From a virus: 53,556 nt of DNA. A program made the position numbers and the translations under genes. Position 1 is the first letter of the stretch, and the number at the start of each line of letters is the position of its first letter. The notes beneath the pieces are model-generated. The model was not told the DNA's origin. It saw only the letters and a list, made by a program, of their open reading frames with translations, and ran no database searches. The stretch is from IMG/VR virus record IMGVR_UViG_3300004184_000007, positions 1 through 53,556 of that record; one strand, written 5' to 3'. Positions 42,175 to 52,329 of this stretch are shown piece by piece.

Positions 42175-43704
42175 ATGCCCTTCACCCCCCGCATCGCCGC
42201 GACCATTCGCGACGCGCTCCTGGCCGACTGGCGCGCCCGCTACCTCGCGCTCTCGCCCCCGCAGGACCTCTCCATCGAGGAGGGCAGCGACGCGTACAAC
42301 GCCGCCGATGCGTGGTCGAAGTCGTTGGAGCCGACGGAGTACCTCGCGGGACAGGCCTCGGCGCGGGTGCTCGTGCGCGGGCAGTTCGGCACGGAGCTGG
42401 ACACCTCGGCGTCCGACGACGGTACGCAGCGCAAAGCCGCGACGGCCGCGCAGCTCTCCGTGCCGGTGACCGGCCCGGCGATCAACGGCACCACGGCGAC
42501 CAACGGCGCCACCCTCTCATCGTCCGACGGCCTGCGCTTCGTCCCGATCGACCCCGATACCGGCGCCGCCCTCACGTCCGTCACCGTGGATGGCAGCGCT
42601 CAGGCGACCCTCACCGTCGAGTGCACGACCCTCGGTACCGACGGGAACCTCCCGACGCCCACGACGCTGACCTGGTCGACGGCGCCCATCGGCTTCGCGG
42701 CCACTGCAGCAACCAGCGGCATCACCCGGCAGGGCACCGCCACAGAGAGCGACACCGCGCTCCAGGCCCGGCTCATCGAGCGGCGGCAGGCGCGCCCGGG
42801 CAGCGGCAACCCCGCCGACGTCCGCCAGAAGCTGCTGGAGTACGCCGGGGTCGACGAGGTGTTCGTGCACCCGTGCATGGCGCCCGACGGCACCTACGCG
42901 CTCGGCTGCATCACCGCGGTGGTGCTCGGCCCCGCGGCGGGCGACTCGACGGCGCCAGGGATCTTCTTCGACGCGCCGACGGGCTCGCCGCGCACGCAGG
43001 CGCTGATGAAGCGCTTCCTGCTGGGGGAGGTCGACGCCGACGGCGAGGAGATCCTCGAGGCGGAGCGGGAGGGGTTCCTCCCGGCGCCGATCCACCCGGA
43101 CAACGTAACGGTGGTGTCGCCTGGAACCGTCGCGTCCGAAGTGGTCGTCACGGTCACGACCTCCGTCGACTACCCGCCGAGCTTCGTCGGGAGCTACGTC
43201 GTGGCGGCCGCGCCCGCGCCGACGACCACGACCTTCTCAACGACGACCCCGATCGACGGGACCGGCCCGGGGAAGATCGAGCCGGACAACATGATCGCGA
43301 TCAACGTGAGCACGCCCGCGAAGCGCGGGGGGTTCACGCGGGGGAAGGTCCTGACGGCGGCGGGAACGAGCGTGATGCTGGCCGAGGCGCTCCCGGCCGC
43401 GCCAGTCGCCGGGACCACCATCTACCCGACCACGGCCGCATGGCAGGGCATCCGCGACGCGGTGTTCGCGACCTTCGACGCGCTGGGCTCTGGCAACCCA
43501 GTCATCATGCCGTCGCGGGAGCAGCGGTTCCCGGCCGAGTCGTGGGGGCGCCCTGCCACCATCCGCGCCTCGCAGCTCATCGCGGCGATCATGGCCGTCC
43601 CTGGGGTGACCGACGTGACCGTAACGATCAGCGGGGGCACGGGGGCGACCGGGTCGATCCGGCACGTTGTCTGGCTCTCGACGCTGACGATCGTGCCGGG
43701 GTGA
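42175..43704 (+). CDS. Baseplate J-like protein (Mu gp47-like)
   Basis: Protein of 509 aa, a core piece of the baseplate wedge. Helical start (RIAATIRDALLADWRARYLA), then ARVLVRGQFGTELDTSASDD, a beta domain (GLRFVPIDPDTGAALTSVTV), the conserved RLIERRQARPGSGNPADVRQ-KLLEYAGVDEVFVHP region of the J family, and a C-terminal domain with GSIRHVVWLSTLTIVPG. The stop codon overlaps in the palindrome TGATCA with the stop of the oppositely oriented lipoprotein gene. Confidence 0.8.
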   Translation: MPFTPRIAATIRDALLADWRARYLALSPPQDLSIEEGSDAYNAADAWSKSLEPTEYLAGQASARVLVRGQFGTELDTSASDDGTQRKAATAAQLSVPVTGPAINGTTATNGATLSSSDGLRFVPIDPDTGAALTSVTVDGSAQATLTVECTTLGTDGNLPTPTTLTWSTAPIGFAATAATSGITRQGTATESDTALQARLIERRQARPGSGNPADVRQKLLEYAGVDEVFVHPCMAPDGTYALGCITAVVLGPAAGDSTAPGIFFDAPTGSPRTQALMKRFLLGEVDADGEEILEAEREGFLPAPIHPDNVTVVSPGTVASEVVVTVTTSVDYPPSFVGSYVVAAAPAPTTTTFSTTTPIDGTGPGKIEPDNMIAINVSTPAKRGGFTRGKVLTAAGTSVMLAEALPAAPVAGTTIYPTTAAWQGIRDAVFATFDALGSGNPVIMPSREQRFPAESWGRPATIRASQLIAAIMAVPGVTDVTVTISGGTGATGSIRHVVWLSTLTIVPG

Positions 43705-44589
43705 TCATCGCGGGCACGACCACGACGTTGTCGTGTCCGCGGCGCAGTTGCAGAAGCTCTGAACCATGGTGGGGCTGGTTCGGTACGTCCCGCACCGCTG
43801 ACACGCCAGCGTGTTGGCGGCATACCGCTGAAGCAGCATCACGTCGGGCGTGCGCGAGGCCACGCACCGGGCGGTGCCCTGCCATGTCCGCTCGCTTGAG
43901 CTGAAGTGGCGATCCTGAAGCGTCAGGCAGTACGCGTTGAGCTCCGCACTGCCCGCGCTGTCCTCGGTCCCGTCGCAGTTGTCGTCGAACCCGTTGCATC
44001 GTTCCGTAGCCCCGGGATGGCGGTCGCGGTCGGTATCGTCGCAGTCCATCCCTCCGCACGCCGGGATCGTCGCCCCGTCCCCATCGGCATCGCAGGCCAC
44101 GCAGGCAGATGCGAAGCACCCACGGCCCGCAGCGCACGCTGCCCCGCAGGCGCCGCAGTTCGCCCCGCTGCTCCGCAGGTTCGTCTCGCAGCCGTTGGCC
44201 GGGTTGCCGTCGCAGTCGGCGAGGCCTTCGGAGCACACGCCGACCCCGCAGCGACCACTGAGGCACGCTGCGCTCATCGCGCCAGCGGGTGTCACGCAGG
44301 CCACGCCGCAGCAGTTCCCGACCGTGGCGGAGGTACATCCAGCCGGAAGAACGTCAGCGGGCACGTCCACTCCCACGTCCCCCGGCCCGGCATCGGGCAG
44401 CGCGGGCCGATCCTCGCCGACGTCCGCCGCGGGCGCGTCCCCGCCACCGGCGTCGATCGCCACGCAGGCCCCGCCGCTGCACACCGTCCCGACGCCGCAC
44501 GCGCTCGAGCAGGGGCCCGAGTCGGGGAGCAGCACAGGGTCAGCGGCGCAAGCGGCGAGGGTGAGGCAGAGCAGGAAGAAGGATCGCAT
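43705..44589 (-). CDS. Cys-rich lipoprotein with MopE-like repeat (moron)
   Basis: Protein of 294 aa on the strand opposite to all surrounding tail genes. ATG 44589 begins a lipoprotein signal peptide with Cys14 after LTLAA (MRSFFLLCLTLAAC). The mature part is Asp/Pro-rich, then Cys-rich: NCCGVACVTPAG, CGVGVCSEGLADCDGNPANG, and a segment with ACDADGDGATIPACGGMDCD and CNGFDDNCDGTED, resembling metal-binding motifs of extracellular proteins of myxobacteria. Likely exported and anchored to the envelope. Expressed independently, it fits a lysogenic-conversion gene such as superinfection exclusion; that role is inference. Confidence 0.7.
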   Translation of the reverse strand: MRSFFLLCLTLAACAADPVLLPDSGPCSSACGVGTVCSGGACVAIDAGGGDAPAADVGEDRPALPDAGPGDVGVDVPADVLPAGCTSATVGNCCGVACVTPAGAMSAACLSGRCGVGVCSEGLADCDGNPANGCETNLRSSGANCGACGAACAAGRGCFASACVACDADGDGATIPACGGMDCDDTDRDRHPGATERCNGFDDNCDGTEDSAGSAELNAYCLTLQDRHFSSSERTWQGTARCVASRTPDVMLLQRYAANTLACQRCGTYRTSPTMVQSFCNCAADTTTSWSCPR

Positions 44590-44644
44590 CCCCGGACGGT
44601 AGCTCAGCCAGGCGCCGAACGAACAACCCACGGAGACCGAGAAC

Positions 44645-44818
44645 ATGAACATCGAAGCCCAGGCCCGATCCGCAGCCGTCGCGACCACCGCGTGCCGCTA
44701 CCTCCGCCCCGTCGTCGAGCGGCGGGTGCTTCGCGCCCTGCGCGCCGCGGTCCGCAACGGCCAATCCGCCGAGCGCATCGCCGCGCTGGCCGCGGCCCTC
44801 ACGGCGCTGAAGGGGTAA
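44645..44818 (+). CDS. 57-aa basic hypothetical protein
   Basis: Begins 55 bases from, and divergent to, the lipoprotein gene. Helical and Arg/Ala-rich (CRYLRPVVERRVLRALRAAV). A GGAGACCGAGAAC stretch before the ATG may be its ribosome site. No family recognised. Confidence 0.4.
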   Translation: MNIEAQARSAAVATTACRYLRPVVERRVLRALRAAVRNGQSAERIAALAAALTALKG

Positions 44819-44823
44819 GCCCC

Positions 44824-45060
44824 CTACGTCGCGCGGCTGCCCTTCGGGGTGACCCCGGCGCAGATGCGGTCGACTTCCGTGACGACGTCCGCTGGCGCCC
44901 TTGGGGGCGCACCCCGCTTCGCATCGAACGCGGCCACCGCGAGCACCGCCCGGATGCGTGCGGAGACGACATACTTCATGTCGCCCGGCACCTCGATCTT
45001 CTCGCCCACCGATGCCTGTAGGTACGCGGACAGGTAGTGGCTGAACTCTTCTTCGCTCAT
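44824..45060 (-). CDS. 78-aa hypothetical protein with strong ribosome site
   Basis: Minus-strand gene ending five bases from the stop of the 57-aa gene. The start ATG 45060 has an unusually perfect GGAGGTGAT site upstream, so it is very likely translated. Sequence MSEEEFSHYLSAYLQASVGE then ARIRAVLAVAAFDAKRGAPP and TEVDRICAGVTPKGSRAT, helical with an acidic N-terminus. Unknown function; part of the accessory island. Confidence 0.6.
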   Translation of the reverse strand: MSEEEFSHYLSAYLQASVGEKIEVPGDMKYVVSARIRAVLAVAAFDAKRGAPPRAPADVVTEVDRICAGVTPKGSRAT

Positions 45061-45150: not shown

Positions 45151-45339
45151 ATGAACATCCTCTCCACCGCCCCCACGCGCGCCGGCGCCGCCGGGGATGT
45201 CGCCCGCCGCCTCGCCTACTGGATGGGTCCGGCCATCCGCGCGGCGGACAGGGCGGCGGACCTTCGCTGCGCGCTCGGCCGCAGCCGCTCCGTCCACGCT
45301 CCCGTGGTACAGACCCCGCCCTCTGGTACGCTCCCGTGA
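45151..45339 (+). CDS. 62-aa hypothetical protein
   Basis: ATG preceded by AGGAG. Basic and Ala-rich (APTRAGAAGDVARRLAYWMG then AADRAADLRCALGRSRS), with a Pro-rich tail. It lies 13 bases before the TPR gene and may be the first cistron of that unit. No family recognised. Confidence 0.4.
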   Translation: MNILSTAPTRAGAAGDVARRLAYWMGPAIRAADRAADLRCALGRSRSVHAPVVQTPPSGTLP

Positions 45340-45352
45340 TCGAGGCCTCCTG

Positions 45353-46159
45353 ATGACCCTGCCCCTCACCAAAGCCGAGCAGCTCTACAACGAGGCGGTC
45401 GCGCGTCTGAACAACGAGTGGGACGTCATCGATCCGTTCACACTTCGCCGGTGGCTTCGGGATGGCCGGGGTCTACTGGACCACGCTGACGACTTTGGGC
45501 GGTGGCAGCTCTGGACGATCATCGGACACTGCGAGTTGCGACTTGCCATGGTGGCCCCGAGCGCGCGCGCCCGGCTGGAAGCCGCTCACGCCGCGTACGA
45601 AGAGGCGCACCGCATCCGGCCGTCGAACCCGCACTCCATCGTCGACGTGGGCCGTGCTCTTGGTCATCTCGGCCGACCCCGGGAGGCGCTCCCCTACTTC
45701 GAGCGGGCCGAGCAGATCTACGCGCCGGACTCGGTGGAGCGGGTCATCGTCCAGGCGAATCTGGCAATGGCCCACTACAGCCTGGAGGATTCACCCCGCG
45801 CCAACGTGTTTCTTCGGCGGGCGATCAAGAGCGTCCGGCCTGACGATGCGCACACGCTCCTGCAGCTCGCTCAGACGGCGGCGCAACTGGGGCACGAGGA
45901 CGACGCGGCGGAGATCTTCGTGCGGTTTCTCGCGGCATCGCAGCGGCGCGAACGAGGCGACGCACCGGCGGCGGACGTGATCCGGCGCACGCCGTCCGAA
46001 GTGATGCTGCGCGCTGTACGGGCGAATGCGCTTCGGGATGCGCTGGTCAACGTGCTCGCACGCGCTGAGGAGCCCATTCCCGACGACATGGCCACGTCCG
46101 CGGAGCGAGTGCTGTCGCCGGAGGGCTGGGCCCGCTTTGAGAGTTTGGTTGAGGCGTGA
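45353..46159 (+). CDS. TPR-repeat protein coupled to the GNAT gene
   Basis: Protein of 268 aa. At least four tetratricopeptide-type helix pairs are visible: RLEAAHAAYEEAHRIRPSNP, VGRALGHLGRPREALPYFER, ANLAMAHYSLEDSPRANVFL, and LLQLAQTAAQLGHEDDAAEI. TPR proteins bind other proteins. Its stop overlaps the acetyltransferase start (GTGA), so the two are made together. In known TacT-type toxin systems the partner is a ribbon-helix-helix antitoxin; a TPR protein here could serve as the neutralising partner. Codon use is less GC-rich at third positions than in the tail genes. Confidence 0.65.
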   Translation: MTLPLTKAEQLYNEAVARLNNEWDVIDPFTLRRWLRDGRGLLDHADDFGRWQLWTIIGHCELRLAMVAPSARARLEAAHAAYEEAHRIRPSNPHSIVDVGRALGHLGRPREALPYFERAEQIYAPDSVERVIVQANLAMAHYSLEDSPRANVFLRRAIKSVRPDDAHTLLQLAQTAAQLGHEDDAAEIFVRFLAASQRRERGDAPAADVIRRTPSEVMLRAVRANALRDALVNVLARAEEPIPDDMATSAERVLSPEGWARFESLVEA

Positions 46160-46695
46160 GCGCGGCCATGGAGGTGCGACGGCTGCTCTCGAAGGACATG
46201 ATTAGCGACTTCAGCTGTGGCACGTCGGCGCTGGACGACTACCTCTCGAAGCACGCGCGCGAGAGCGCGGGTCGGCAGTGGAACGCGACGTGGCTCGCGA
46301 TCGACACCGAAGGCGACGACGCGATCGCCGGGTACGTGACGATGGTCCCCGGTTCGGTCCGAAGCGCGCTCCTGAAGCCGCTCATACCCCGGCTCCCGGG
46401 ATATCCCGCGCCGGTGCTGCTGCTCGCGAAGATGGCCACAGACCTCCGGTTCCGGGGTCGGGGCGTGGGGACCCGGCTCCTGCGGGAGGTCTTCCGTGCG
46501 GCCCTCACCCAGGCCGAGCAGGTCGGCTGCGTGGGCGTGTTCACCGACGCCAAGCCCGATGCCGTGGCGTTCTACGACCGGCAAGGGTTCGTGCTGGTCG
46601 AGGCGCCCCAGGCAGAGGTCGGCACGACGGCGATGTTTCTGACGATGCCCGCGGTCCGGGAGCGGCTCGTGGCGCTCGCCGACGCGCCCCAGTAG
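46156..46695 (+). CDS. GNAT acetyltransferase of TacT/AtaT toxin type
   Basis: Protein of 179 aa. GTG 46156 overlaps the TPR stop; an in-frame ATG four codons on is an alternative start. The family signature FSCGTSALDDYLSKHARES opens the protein, IAGYVTMVPGSV gives the beta strands, RFRGRGVG (about residues 98-105) is the acetyl-CoA loop, and the catalytic Tyr140 stands in AVAFYDRQGFV. These features match toxins that acetylate the amino group of charged tRNAs and stop translation. Paired with a TPR protein rather than the usual DUF1778-type antitoxin. Strong family call, biological role inferred. Confidence 0.8.
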   Translation: MSAAMEVRRLLSKDMISDFSCGTSALDDYLSKHARESAGRQWNATWLAIDTEGDDAIAGYVTMVPGSVRSALLKPLIPRLPGYPAPVLLLAKMATDLRFRGRGVGTRLLREVFRAALTQAEQVGCVGVFTDAKPDAVAFYDRQGFVLVEAPQAEVGTTAMFLTMPAVRERLVALADAPQ

Positions 46696-46792: not shown

Positions 46793-47398
46793 ATGACCCA
46801 GTCCCTCCCATCCGGCTCCACCGCGGCCGACCGGATCGCCCGTGAGCTCGCCCGCCTCCGCGGCCCAGAGATCTCCCCCTCCGACGGCACCCTCGTCGCT
46901 GAAGACCTCCGCGCCCAGGGCGGCGCCGCGGCCCTGGCGCGTGCGACGATCCAGCGAGCGATCGCCCAGGCCCACCCGAGCACCGCGACCGACCTGCTGC
47001 CGGAGCTCGAGGCAGAGTACGGCCTGCCGAGCGGGTCCGCGCTCTCGACCTCCGCGCGCCAACTGCGGCTCCTCGCGAAGTACCGGGCGCGGGGCGACGG
47101 CTCGCTGAACGCGCTCGCTGTCACCGTGCGGACGCTCGTGCCGACGGCGACGCTGCTCGCCATCGCCGCAGCCGCCGTGGCGGACACCGCCCCCGACGCG
47201 GTGTTCAACCTGGTAGTGCTGGTCCCGCTCGCCACCATGGACGACGCGAACGTCCTCGCCGAGCTCGACGCGCTCCTCGGCCAGCAGGTCACCAGCTACG
47301 CGAACTGGACCTACGGCCGCGGCGCGGGCCCCGACATCGACCCCTTCCTCTGCGACCGCACCGACTCGCAGTGCGACGTCGACCTCCTCGCCTCGTAG
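46793..47398 (+). CDS. Baseplate protein (Mu gp48 / DUF2313-like)
   Basis: Protein of 201 aa with TGGAG before the ATG. LLPELEAEYGLPSGSALSTS-ARQLRLLAKYRARG and ALAVTVRTLVPTATLLA follow the gp48/YmfQ pattern. This is the last conserved baseplate piece before the fibres. Resumes the tail gene order after the accessory island. Confidence 0.75.
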   Translation: MTQSLPSGSTAADRIARELARLRGPEISPSDGTLVAEDLRAQGGAAALARATIQRAIAQAHPSTATDLLPELEAEYGLPSGSALSTSARQLRLLAKYRARGDGSLNALAVTVRTLVPTATLLAIAAAAVADTAPDAVFNLVVLVPLATMDDANVLAELDALLGQQVTSYANWTYGRGAGPDIDPFLCDRTDSQCDVDLLAS

Positions 47399-51063: not shown

Positions 51064-51260
51064 AGGAGCATATCCTCCAGTTCTTCGCGTGGTCGCACCT
51101 CCCGGAGCGCCTGCAGGCCGTGTCGCGTCCGTTCGGTGAGTTGGCCGATACCATCGTCGCGACGCTGCCGCGGAACCCCGAGCGAACCGTCGCGCTCCGC
51201 AAGCTCCTCGAAGCGAAGGACGCTGCTGTGCGCGCCGCGCTCGCGAAGGAGGATGCCTGA
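51060..51260 (+). CDS. acb2: Acb2-like anti-CBASS protein (cyclic-nucleotide sponge)
   Basis: Protein of 66 aa from GTG 51060, overlapping the lipoprotein stop. The whole length fits Acb2/T4 Vs.4: FFAWSHLPERLQAVSRPFGE followed by the signature LPRNPERTVALRKLLEAKDA and AVRAAL, a helical hairpin. Family members form hexamers that bind and sequester cyclic di- and trinucleotides made by CBASS sensors, so the effector is never triggered. Key Arg/Thr/Lys residues of the second helix are present. Overlapping the next start as well, so it is made with the neighbouring genes. No other known anti-defence gene seen nearby. Confidence 0.82.
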   Translation: MKEHILQFFAWSHLPERLQAVSRPFGELADTIVATLPRNPERTVALRKLLEAKDAAVRAALAKEDA

Positions 51261-51580
51261 TGGTCGCCATCGACCTGCGCCGCACCTGCCCCGTCACCGT
51301 CGTCGAGGACATCGACGCGCCCGGCACCGCGCCGGGCTCCATCGAAGTCCGTGGCGCGGGCACCGAATATGGCGGCTACGGCTACGCCTGCCCGGGCTGC
51401 GGCTCGCTCTCCTTCCTCGCGATCGGCTCGGAGAACCCGTCGCCGCGCTGGCGCGTCACCGCTGGCGACGTCGCGAAGCCCGAGACCGTCTCCCTCTCGC
51501 CGTCGATCCTGCACAGCGTCGAGCGCGGCGGCTGCGGCTGGCATGGCTACCTCACCAACGGAGTCCTCGCCCCATGCTGA
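51260..51580 (+). CDS. DUF6527-like zinc protein
   Basis: Protein of 106 aa. YACPGCGSLSFLAIG (CxxC), PRWRVTAGDVAKPETVSLSP-SILHSV and GGCGWHGYL follow the DUF6527 pattern (Cys pair, a buried Pro-Ser, GCxWHxxL) of small phage proteins that are often misnamed ammonia monooxygenase. Likely a zinc-stabilised fold. Function not known; between Acb2 and a peptidase gene, both overlapping. Confidence 0.65.
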   Translation: MVAIDLRRTCPVTVVEDIDAPGTAPGSIEVRGAGTEYGGYGYACPGCGSLSFLAIGSENPSPRWRVTAGDVAKPETVSLSPSILHSVERGGCGWHGYLTNGVLAPC

Positions 51581-52329
51581 ACACTCCCCGCGCCCTCGGC
51601 TGGCACCCGCCCGAGTCCCGCGGTCGCGCCCCTCACCAGGGCCTCCGCGTCGCCACCCCAGGCGGCTTCGCCGCGCTGCGCCCCGAGGTGCTGCTCGAGC
51701 ACCTGCCGCCGGTCTACGACCAGGGCTCCGTCGGCTCCTGCACCGCGCAGGCCCTCGCGTGCGCCGTCGAGGCGCTGCTCCCGCGCGCCGGGTACGCGGC
51801 CGAGCGGCCCGACCGCGCGATGCTCTACCGCCGCGAGCGCGACATGATCGGCACGCCCTACGAGGACTCCGGCGCGATCCTCGCCGACGGCGTCGAGGCG
51901 CTGCGGCGCGGCTGGGAGCCCGAGGCCATCGAGCCCCCGCCCTTCTTCGACCGCAGCTGGCGCGAGCAGGCACCCACCCTCCCGGCGACGGCGCCGCGGC
52001 TGGTGTCCGCCGAAGCGCTCGACTTCGACGCGTTGACGATCGCGACGGAGCTGGACGCGGGGCACGTCGTCGTGGTCGGGCTCAGCGTCACCGAGCAGTG
52101 GTCTGCGGCCTGGGGCGTCGAGGCGCTCCCGGAGCCCGGCGGCCGGGTGATCGGCGGGCACGCCGTGGCGCTGGTGGGCTACAGCCTCCCGCGCCGCTGC
52201 TGGGTCGTGCGCAACAGCTGGGGCCCGCAGTGGGGCACGGGTGGCAGCGCGCTCCTCCCGTGGGCATGGACGGAGATGCCCTGGTGCGGCGAGGCGCACA
52301 GCCTCCGCGCCGTGCGGAGGGCATCGTGA
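51574..52329 (+). CDS. C1A papain-like cysteine peptidase
   Basis: Protein of 251 aa. The complete triad is visible: oxyanion Gln50 and nucleophile Cys56 in VYDQGSVGSCTAQALA, His196 in IGGHAVALVGY, and Asn214 in VRNSWGPQWG. It lacks a signal peptide and a recognisable pro-domain, so it acts inside the cell, in the virion, or after lysis. It starts inside the DUF6527 stop, so the two are translated together. Substrate unknown; possible targets are host proteins at takeover, or the cell envelope after release. Confidence 0.85.
   Translation: MLNTPRALGWHPPESRGRAPHQGLRVATPGGFAALRPEVLLEHLPPVYDQGSVGSCTAQALACAVEALLPRAGYAAERPDRAMLYRRERDMIGTPYEDSGAILADGVEALRRGWEPEAIEPPPFFDRSWREQAPTLPATAPRLVSAEALDFDALTIATELDAGHVVVVGLSVTEQWSAAWGVEALPEPGGRVIGGHAVALVGYSLPRRCWVVRNSWGPQWGTGGSALLPWAWTEMPWCGEAHSLRAVRRAS

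What the first reader, a model, noticed from the sequence alone, without database searches (positions are those of the whole stretch)
45353..46695. TPR protein coupled to a TacT-like GNAT toxin: possible new type of toxin-antitoxin or defence pair
The acetyltransferase has the hallmarks of tRNA-acetylating toxins (FSCGTSALDDYL start, RGRGVG loop, Tyr140), but the overlapping upstream gene is a 268-aa TPR protein instead of the small ribbon-helix-helix antitoxin that normally accompanies this family. It lies in an island between two baseplate genes. A TPR partner as antitoxin, or a TPR sensor that releases the toxin on infection by another phage, would be a new design.
Basis: partly seen in the sequence, partly recalled or inferred. 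Interest (0 to 1): 0.7.

Follow-up and report, generated by a model that had tools for sequence, protein, structure and literature searches.

The report
Phage TacT-like toxin with TPR antitoxin
A bacterial virus carries a protein-synthesis-blocking toxin of a well-known family, but its usual small DNA-binding antidote is replaced by a helical-repeat (TPR) protein whose last 19 residues look like that antidote's toxin-gripping tail.

Summary
At 45353-46159 lies a 268-aa TPR gene and, overlapping it by 4 bases (GTGA), a 179-aa acetyltransferase gene (46156-46695), in an island between two baseplate genes of a phage. The acetyltransferase is a TacT/AtaT-type toxin by sequence and by fold: the best 38 chains in the PDB by fold are all toxin-antitoxin GNATs. 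In a survey, 67 of 69 relatives have a DUF1778 ribbon-helix-helix antitoxin immediately upstream and none has a TPR protein. New here: the TPR protein ends in AERVLSPEGWARFESLVEA, which matches the C-terminal, toxin-binding segment of DUF1778 antitoxins. It scores 17.6 bits; none of 3,509 control ORFs reaches that at any position; chance at the fixed C-terminal position is about 1e-6. Best reading: a type II toxin-antitoxin module whose antitoxin kept the neutralising tail but carries a TPR solenoid in place of the DNA-binding domain. Against it: the pair was found only in this phage and one identical contig, genomes of the likely host phylum could not be reached, the tail lacks the usual PPxPN extension, and no co-folding or toxicity test was possible. 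Sensing of infection by the TPR domain is untested.

The parts
45353..46159 (+). TPR protein (268 aa), proposed antitoxin: TPR solenoid about residues 7-199, linker helices 200-249, antitoxin-like tail 250-268
   Evidence: Pfam TPR_12 3.2e-11; single-sequence AlphaFold2 model, mean pLDDT 82.8, helices from 7 to 199 confident, 200-268 less so
46100..46156 (+). Codons of the C-terminal tail AERVLSPEGWARFESLVEA (residues 250-268), resembling the toxin-binding tail of DUF1778/TacA antitoxins
   Evidence: PSSM of 67 antitoxin tails: 17.6 bits; 0 of 3,509 control ORFs reach it; rank 1 of 3,510 with an HMM of 37 tail columns; fixed-position P 8e-7 to 3e-6
46156..46695 (+). GNAT acetyltransferase of the TacT/AtaT/KacT toxin family (179 aa from GTG; 175 aa from ATG 46168), proposed aminoacyl-tRNA-acetylating toxin
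   Evidence: PDB sequence matches are GNAT toxins first (9ilr GmvT 2.8e-15, 6g96 TacT3 4e-14); AlphaFold2 pLDDT 94.3; Foldseek top 38 all GNAT toxins
46156..46159 (+). GTGA overlap: stop of the TPR gene and possible GTG start of the GNAT gene (translational coupling)
   Evidence: sequence
43705..44688 (-). Other cargo of the same island: MopE-like cysteine-rich putative lipoprotein (327 aa from GTG)
   Evidence: Pfam Cu-binding_MopE 4.7e-10
44824..45060 (-). Other cargo of the same island: 78-aa ORF, no family
42175..43704 (+). Left border of the island: baseplate wedge (J-like) gene
   Evidence: phrog_6 2e-30
46793..47398 (+). Right border of the island: baseplate (I-like) gene
   Evidence: phrog_203 2.4e-9

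Best explanation
The pair is a type II toxin-antitoxin module carried by a phage as cargo between two baseplate genes. [quoted passage not shown] The antitoxin is the upstream TPR protein: its last 19 residues (a short segment plus a helix) correspond to the tail with which DUF1778/TacA antitoxins grip and block the toxin, while the ribbon-helix-helix DNA-binding half has been replaced by a TPR solenoid. Shown: gene order and overlap, toxin family and fold, and the tail match beyond chance. Inferred: binding, neutralisation, toxicity. Guessed: the TPR part replaces DNA-based autoregulation by binding another protein or peptide, so that the toxin is released on a signal, for example in addiction or superinfection exclusion.
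For: GNAT: the PDB sequence search puts GmvT, TacT3, TacT, KacT and AtaT first, at 2.8e-15 down to 6.8e-6, and the next kind, AAC(3)-XI, only at 2.9e-4; the model with pLDDT 94.3 matches 38 toxin chains first (6e-14 to 2e-10) before any other GNAT at 2.7e-7; in a tree it lies among toxins, next to L009 and L012, which both have an RHH antitoxin. Rule: 67 of 69 relatives have a DUF1778-like gene directly upstream, and all 27 and all 27 in two partly overlapping further sets. Tail: top of all window ORFs, 0 of 3,509 control ORFs reach its score and rank 1 of 3,510 by HMM, 0 of 18 TPR control ORFs, best 10.0 bits, fixed-position P 8e-7 to 3e-6; the highest-scoring toxin relative (L005) also has the most similar tail of 67. 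Gene overlap and order are those of a TA operon. Solved structures of TacT1, TacT3, AtaT and GmvT with only the antitoxin's C-terminal part exist (titles), so the tail alone can bind. Antitoxin swapping is known for GNAT toxins: DUF4065 (PMC9177977); GNAT-Xre with PacA (PMC9561280).
Against: The pair was seen only in this phage and an identical contig; no TPR-GNAT pair in about 100 toxin loci, and no relative of the TPR protein in the phage or plasmid collections. The tail is only 19 residues and stops where most antitoxins go on with a second, PPxPNxxL segment. The region before it (196-249) is not like a ribbon-helix-helix domain beyond chance (p about 0.1). Tail similarity and toxin similarity do not correlate over all 67 loci (Spearman -0.15, p 0.22). 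The tail was first noticed by eye and the 19 columns were cut to its length; the 37-column HMM, not cut to this protein, ranks it first but with only 10.4 bits.
Confidence: 0.6

Rival explanations
1. The two genes are unrelated neighbours: a TacT-like toxin whose antitoxin is elsewhere or lost (or an enzyme that is no longer toxic), beside an ordinary TPR protein that works with the lipoprotein or the host.
For: The pair is not conserved in what could be searched; the island is a mixed cargo site with a lipoprotein and a small ORF of other orientation.
Against: Four-base overlap in antitoxin-toxin order; no DUF1778 antitoxin (PF08681) anywhere in the record at E up to 10; a toxin without antitoxin would be selected against; the tail match at the exact C-terminus.
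Confidence: 0.22
2. A NatA-like complex: the TPR protein is the scaffold and the GNAT the catalytic subunit of a protein N-terminal acetyltransferase, as Naa15 (TPR) and Naa10 (GNAT) in eukaryotes; the target would be a host or virion protein.
For: TPR plus GNAT is the architecture of NatA (own knowledge); Ard1 and Naa10 structures are among the next best fold matches after the toxins (ranks 39 and 43).
Against: They are far weaker than the toxins (2.7e-7 and TM about 0.6 against 6e-14 and TM 0.88); sequence matches are to toxins first; the TPR model does not list Naa15 among its best 50 matches; the antitoxin-like tail is not explained.
Confidence: 0.08
3. The acetyltransferase descends from the toxins but acts as a phage takeover enzyme that shuts off host translation late in infection, with the TPR protein as its regulator or delivery partner rather than a true antitoxin.
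For: Position inside the late (baseplate) gene block, same strand as the structural genes; canonical GNAT TA modules also occur in phages near lysis genes (Escherichia phage Cyrano).
Against: No promoter or terminator was found to assign its timing; structural genes still need translation when late genes are on; a neutraliser would be needed in any case.
Confidence: 0.1

Closest known systems
TacA-TacT / AtaR-AtaT / KacA-KacT / GmvA-GmvT (GNAT-RHH type II toxin-antitoxin systems)
   Same: GNAT toxin of the same family by sequence, fold and key residues; antitoxin gene directly upstream and overlapping or adjacent; antitoxin ends in a tail of the same pattern (hLSxxxWxxFxxLLxx).
   Different: Antitoxin is 268 aa with TPR repeats instead of about 90 aa with a ribbon-helix-helix domain; tail lacks the PPxPN extension.
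VcaA-VcaT (GNAT toxin with DUF4065 antitoxin; PMC9177977)
   Same: A GNAT toxin of the family whose usual antitoxin was replaced by an unrelated protein.
   Different: DUF4065, not TPR; no DUF1778-like tail is mentioned for it in the passages read.
PacA-PacT (GNAT-Xre; PMC9561280)
   Same: GNAT toxin with a non-RHH antitoxin.
   Different: The paper reports low homology of PacT to the GNAT-RHH toxins; HTH antitoxin; reverse gene order.
Mycobacterium phage prophi52-1 genes 32-34 and Escherichia phage Cyrano genes 27-26
   Same: GNAT toxin modules carried by phages.
   Different: Small antitoxin genes; the one in prophi52-1 is PF08681 at 1.2e-22.
NatA (Naa10 GNAT with Naa15 TPR scaffold)
   Same: TPR protein with a GNAT enzyme.
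   Different: The enzyme here is a TacT-type GNAT, and the TPR protein carries an antitoxin-like tail.

Membership tests
GNAT (TacT/AtaT-type) toxin | Sequence and fold closest to GNAT toxins rather than to other GNATs | tested here: met
GNAT (TacT/AtaT-type) toxin | Acetyl-CoA loop R/Q-x-x-G-x-G/A and catalytic Tyr | tested here: met
   RGRGVG; Tyr140 invariant in the alignment; motif defined in PMC7180214
GNAT (TacT/AtaT-type) toxin | Toxicity through acetylation of aminoacyl-tRNA | not testable with these tools
   needs expression and LC-MS
GNAT-RHH (DUF1778) type II toxin-antitoxin system | Small ribbon-helix-helix antitoxin encoded next to the toxin | tested here: not met
   PF08681 finds nothing in the record at E up to 10; partner is TPR; region 196-249 not RHH-like beyond chance
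GNAT-RHH (DUF1778) type II toxin-antitoxin system | Antitoxin C-terminal toxin-binding segment | tested here: met
   first part present at residues 250-268; the following PPxPN part is absent
Type II toxin-antitoxin system (general) | Antitoxin and toxin genes adjacent, antitoxin usually first, often overlapping | tested here: met
Type II toxin-antitoxin system (general) | Antitoxin protein binds and neutralises the toxin | not testable with these tools
   co-folding of two chains and bench tests were not available
Type II toxin-antitoxin system (general) | Pair recurs as a module in unrelated genomes | tested here: inconclusive
NatA-type N-terminal acetyltransferase complex | Catalytic subunit most like Naa10/Ard1 | tested here: not met
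   toxins match first by about six orders of magnitude in E-value

The most novel reading that the evidence does not exclude
A sensor-type antitoxin: a TPR solenoid fused to a TacA-type neutralising tail, which holds a tRNA-acetylating toxin and lets go when the TPR domain binds a ligand such as a protein of a rival phage or a damaged host factor, giving the phage an abortive-infection or superinfection-exclusion device.
Probability: 0.15. Interest if true: 0.8.

Novelty: new variant of a known kind. Interest (0 to 1): 0.58.

Why it matters
GNAT toxins are a large family, and the antitoxins named for them in the papers read are RHH, DUF4065 or Xre/HTH proteins. A TPR protein that keeps only the neutralising tail would show that the tail is a portable module that can be attached to a protein-binding solenoid instead of a DNA-binding domain, which would turn an autoregulated module into one that could respond to proteins. 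It predicts exactly which 19 residues should be necessary, and perhaps sufficient, for neutralisation, so it can be tested cheaply in a laboratory strain.

Tried and rejected
Ribbon-helix-helix domain hidden in residues 196-249 of the TPR protein: the local alignment with the L005 antitoxin spans it (score 49), but without the tail the similarity is at chance (p about 0.1); rejected. Hidden DUF1778 gene elsewhere in the record: none. A special similarity of the TPR tail to the L009 antitoxin (EIPEDI...) seen by eye: pairwise score at chance (813 of 3,000 shuffles); rejected. Finding TPR-GNAT pairs by alignment-based scans of viral contigs: alignments too diverse or only the twin contig found. 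Reaching myxobacterial genomes through the genome search: not possible from a virus record or by phylum name, and a plasmid I remembered is not held. Co-folding by a fused reading of the two genes was not attempted, because the structure tool takes natural proteins only. Relatives of the phage through baseplate and terminase genes: only the twin contig, so no empty site could be shown. A second draw of 385 genomes returned nearly the same genomes.

Full report
What is there. The window is a 53,556-base virus record; a second IMG/VR contig of 48,689 bases carries the same region at 100% identity, so it is not independent evidence. It is a tailed phage with recognisable terminase, capsid and baseplate genes. 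Between a J-like baseplate gene (42175-43704) and an I-like one (46793-47398) lies an island with a minus-strand MopE-like lipoprotein, a 78-aa ORF, and the TPR-GNAT pair. A MopE-like protein and GC of 72% suggest a myxobacterial host, but this was not shown. Their third-position GC (0.81, 0.90) is below that of the baseplate genes (0.94), as for acquired cargo.

The acetyltransferase. Sequence search of the PDB lists GNAT toxins first (GmvT 9ilr, TacT3 6g96, TacT, KacT, AtaT), with the first other enzyme at 2.9e-4. PHROGs puts it in phrog_1758, acetyltransferase, 3.4e-22; no PADLOC family matches. The AlphaFold2 model made with an alignment of 39 sequences has mean pLDDT 94.3. Foldseek against the PDB returns 38 toxin chains first, E 6e-14 to 2e-10 and TM up to 0.89; the next is Ard1 at 2.7e-7. 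In a maximum-likelihood tree it sits among toxins, grouped with L009 (Thiodictyon plasmid) and L012 (Aeromonas plasmid), support 97/90, though L012 is a long branch; two non-toxin GNATs fall outside. The acetyl-CoA loop and Tyr140 are intact.

The rule and the exception. In 69 toxin loci with a located match, 67 have a DUF1778-like ribbon-helix-helix gene directly upstream. The two others are L009, which has a CopG-like ribbon-helix-helix gene with a truncated annotated start, and L069, unresolved. Two further sets gave 27 of 27 each; they overlap partly with the first. None has a TPR protein. The window has no DUF1778 gene.

The tail. The TPR protein ends in AERVLSPEGWARFESLVEA. I noticed that this looks like the C-terminal segment of DUF1778 antitoxins (for example L005 RVVQIAPDQWAEFEAMLAA and AtaR RRVILNEESWTRVMDALSNP) and then tested it. 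A position-specific matrix from 67 antitoxin tails gives the last 19 residues 17.6 bits, within the range of true antitoxins left out one at a time (5% 14.6, median 21.6), and the highest of 364 ORFs of the window; shuffles of the last 60 residues reach it in 3 of 20,000. Of 3,509 ORFs from two other genomes none reaches it at any position, and the best at the exact C-terminus is 12.3. An HMM of 37 tail columns, not cut to this protein, ranks it first of 3,510, with a modest 10.4 bits. Among 18 TPR-like control ORFs the best is 10.0. The probability at the fixed C-terminal position is 8e-7 to 3e-6. The relative with the highest toxin alignment score, L005, also has the most similar tail of the 67, but over all loci the two similarities do not correlate. 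The part before the tail (196-249) is not similar to the ribbon-helix-helix domain beyond chance. The single-sequence AlphaFold2 model (mean pLDDT 82.8) shows a TPR solenoid at 7-199, less certain helices after it, and a last helix at 256-267; fold matches are designed TPRs, O-GlcNAc transferase, kinesin light chain and MamA.

How it probably works. Structures of TacT1, TacT3, AtaT and GmvT with only the C-terminal part of their antitoxins are in the PDB (titles), so the tail by itself is a binding element. The simplest reading is that the TPR protein is the antitoxin and uses the same tail, with the DNA-binding half replaced by a TPR solenoid. The literature read names RHH and DUF4065 antitoxins (PMC9177977) and Xre/HTH (PMC9561280) for GNAT toxins; searches for TPR antitoxins of GNAT toxins gave no such report, judged from titles and abstracts and within an open-access library only. 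What the TPR part does is a guess: it may bind a host or phage protein and so couple toxin release to a signal.

Limits. No second, independent TPR-GNAT pair was found; whole-genome searches reached Pseudomonadota only because no myxobacterial genome could be made a centre. The tail is short and lacks the PPxPN extension. Binding, neutralisation and toxicity are untested. Hence 0.6 for the toxin-antitoxin reading, and 'new variant of a known kind'.

Noticed in passing
window 43705-44688 (-): MopE-like (PF11617) cysteine-rich putative lipoprotein in the middle of a phage baseplate gene block; it may change the surface of the infected host.
   Followed up: no
window 51682-52329 (+): Papain-family C1 cysteine peptidase encoded near the right end of the phage record.
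   Followed up: no
window 51260-51580 (+): DUF6527 protein upstream of the C1 peptidase.
   Followed up: no
L009 2711-3001 (Thiodictyon plasmid pTs417): GNAT toxin paired with a CopG-like ribbon-helix-helix protein that matches neither Pfam TacA1 nor NCBIfam; the annotated start is truncated.
   Followed up: partly
L040, upstream of the GNAT match at 1501: Antitoxin ORF of 76 aa that seems to lack most of the ribbon-helix-helix half but keeps the tail (LEQSHFVVSNTVFDQVLDLVEN).
   Followed up: no
window 45151-45339 (+): 62-aa ORF with an AGGAG-like site, ending 13 bases before the TPR gene; could be a leader or a third gene of the operon.
   Followed up: no
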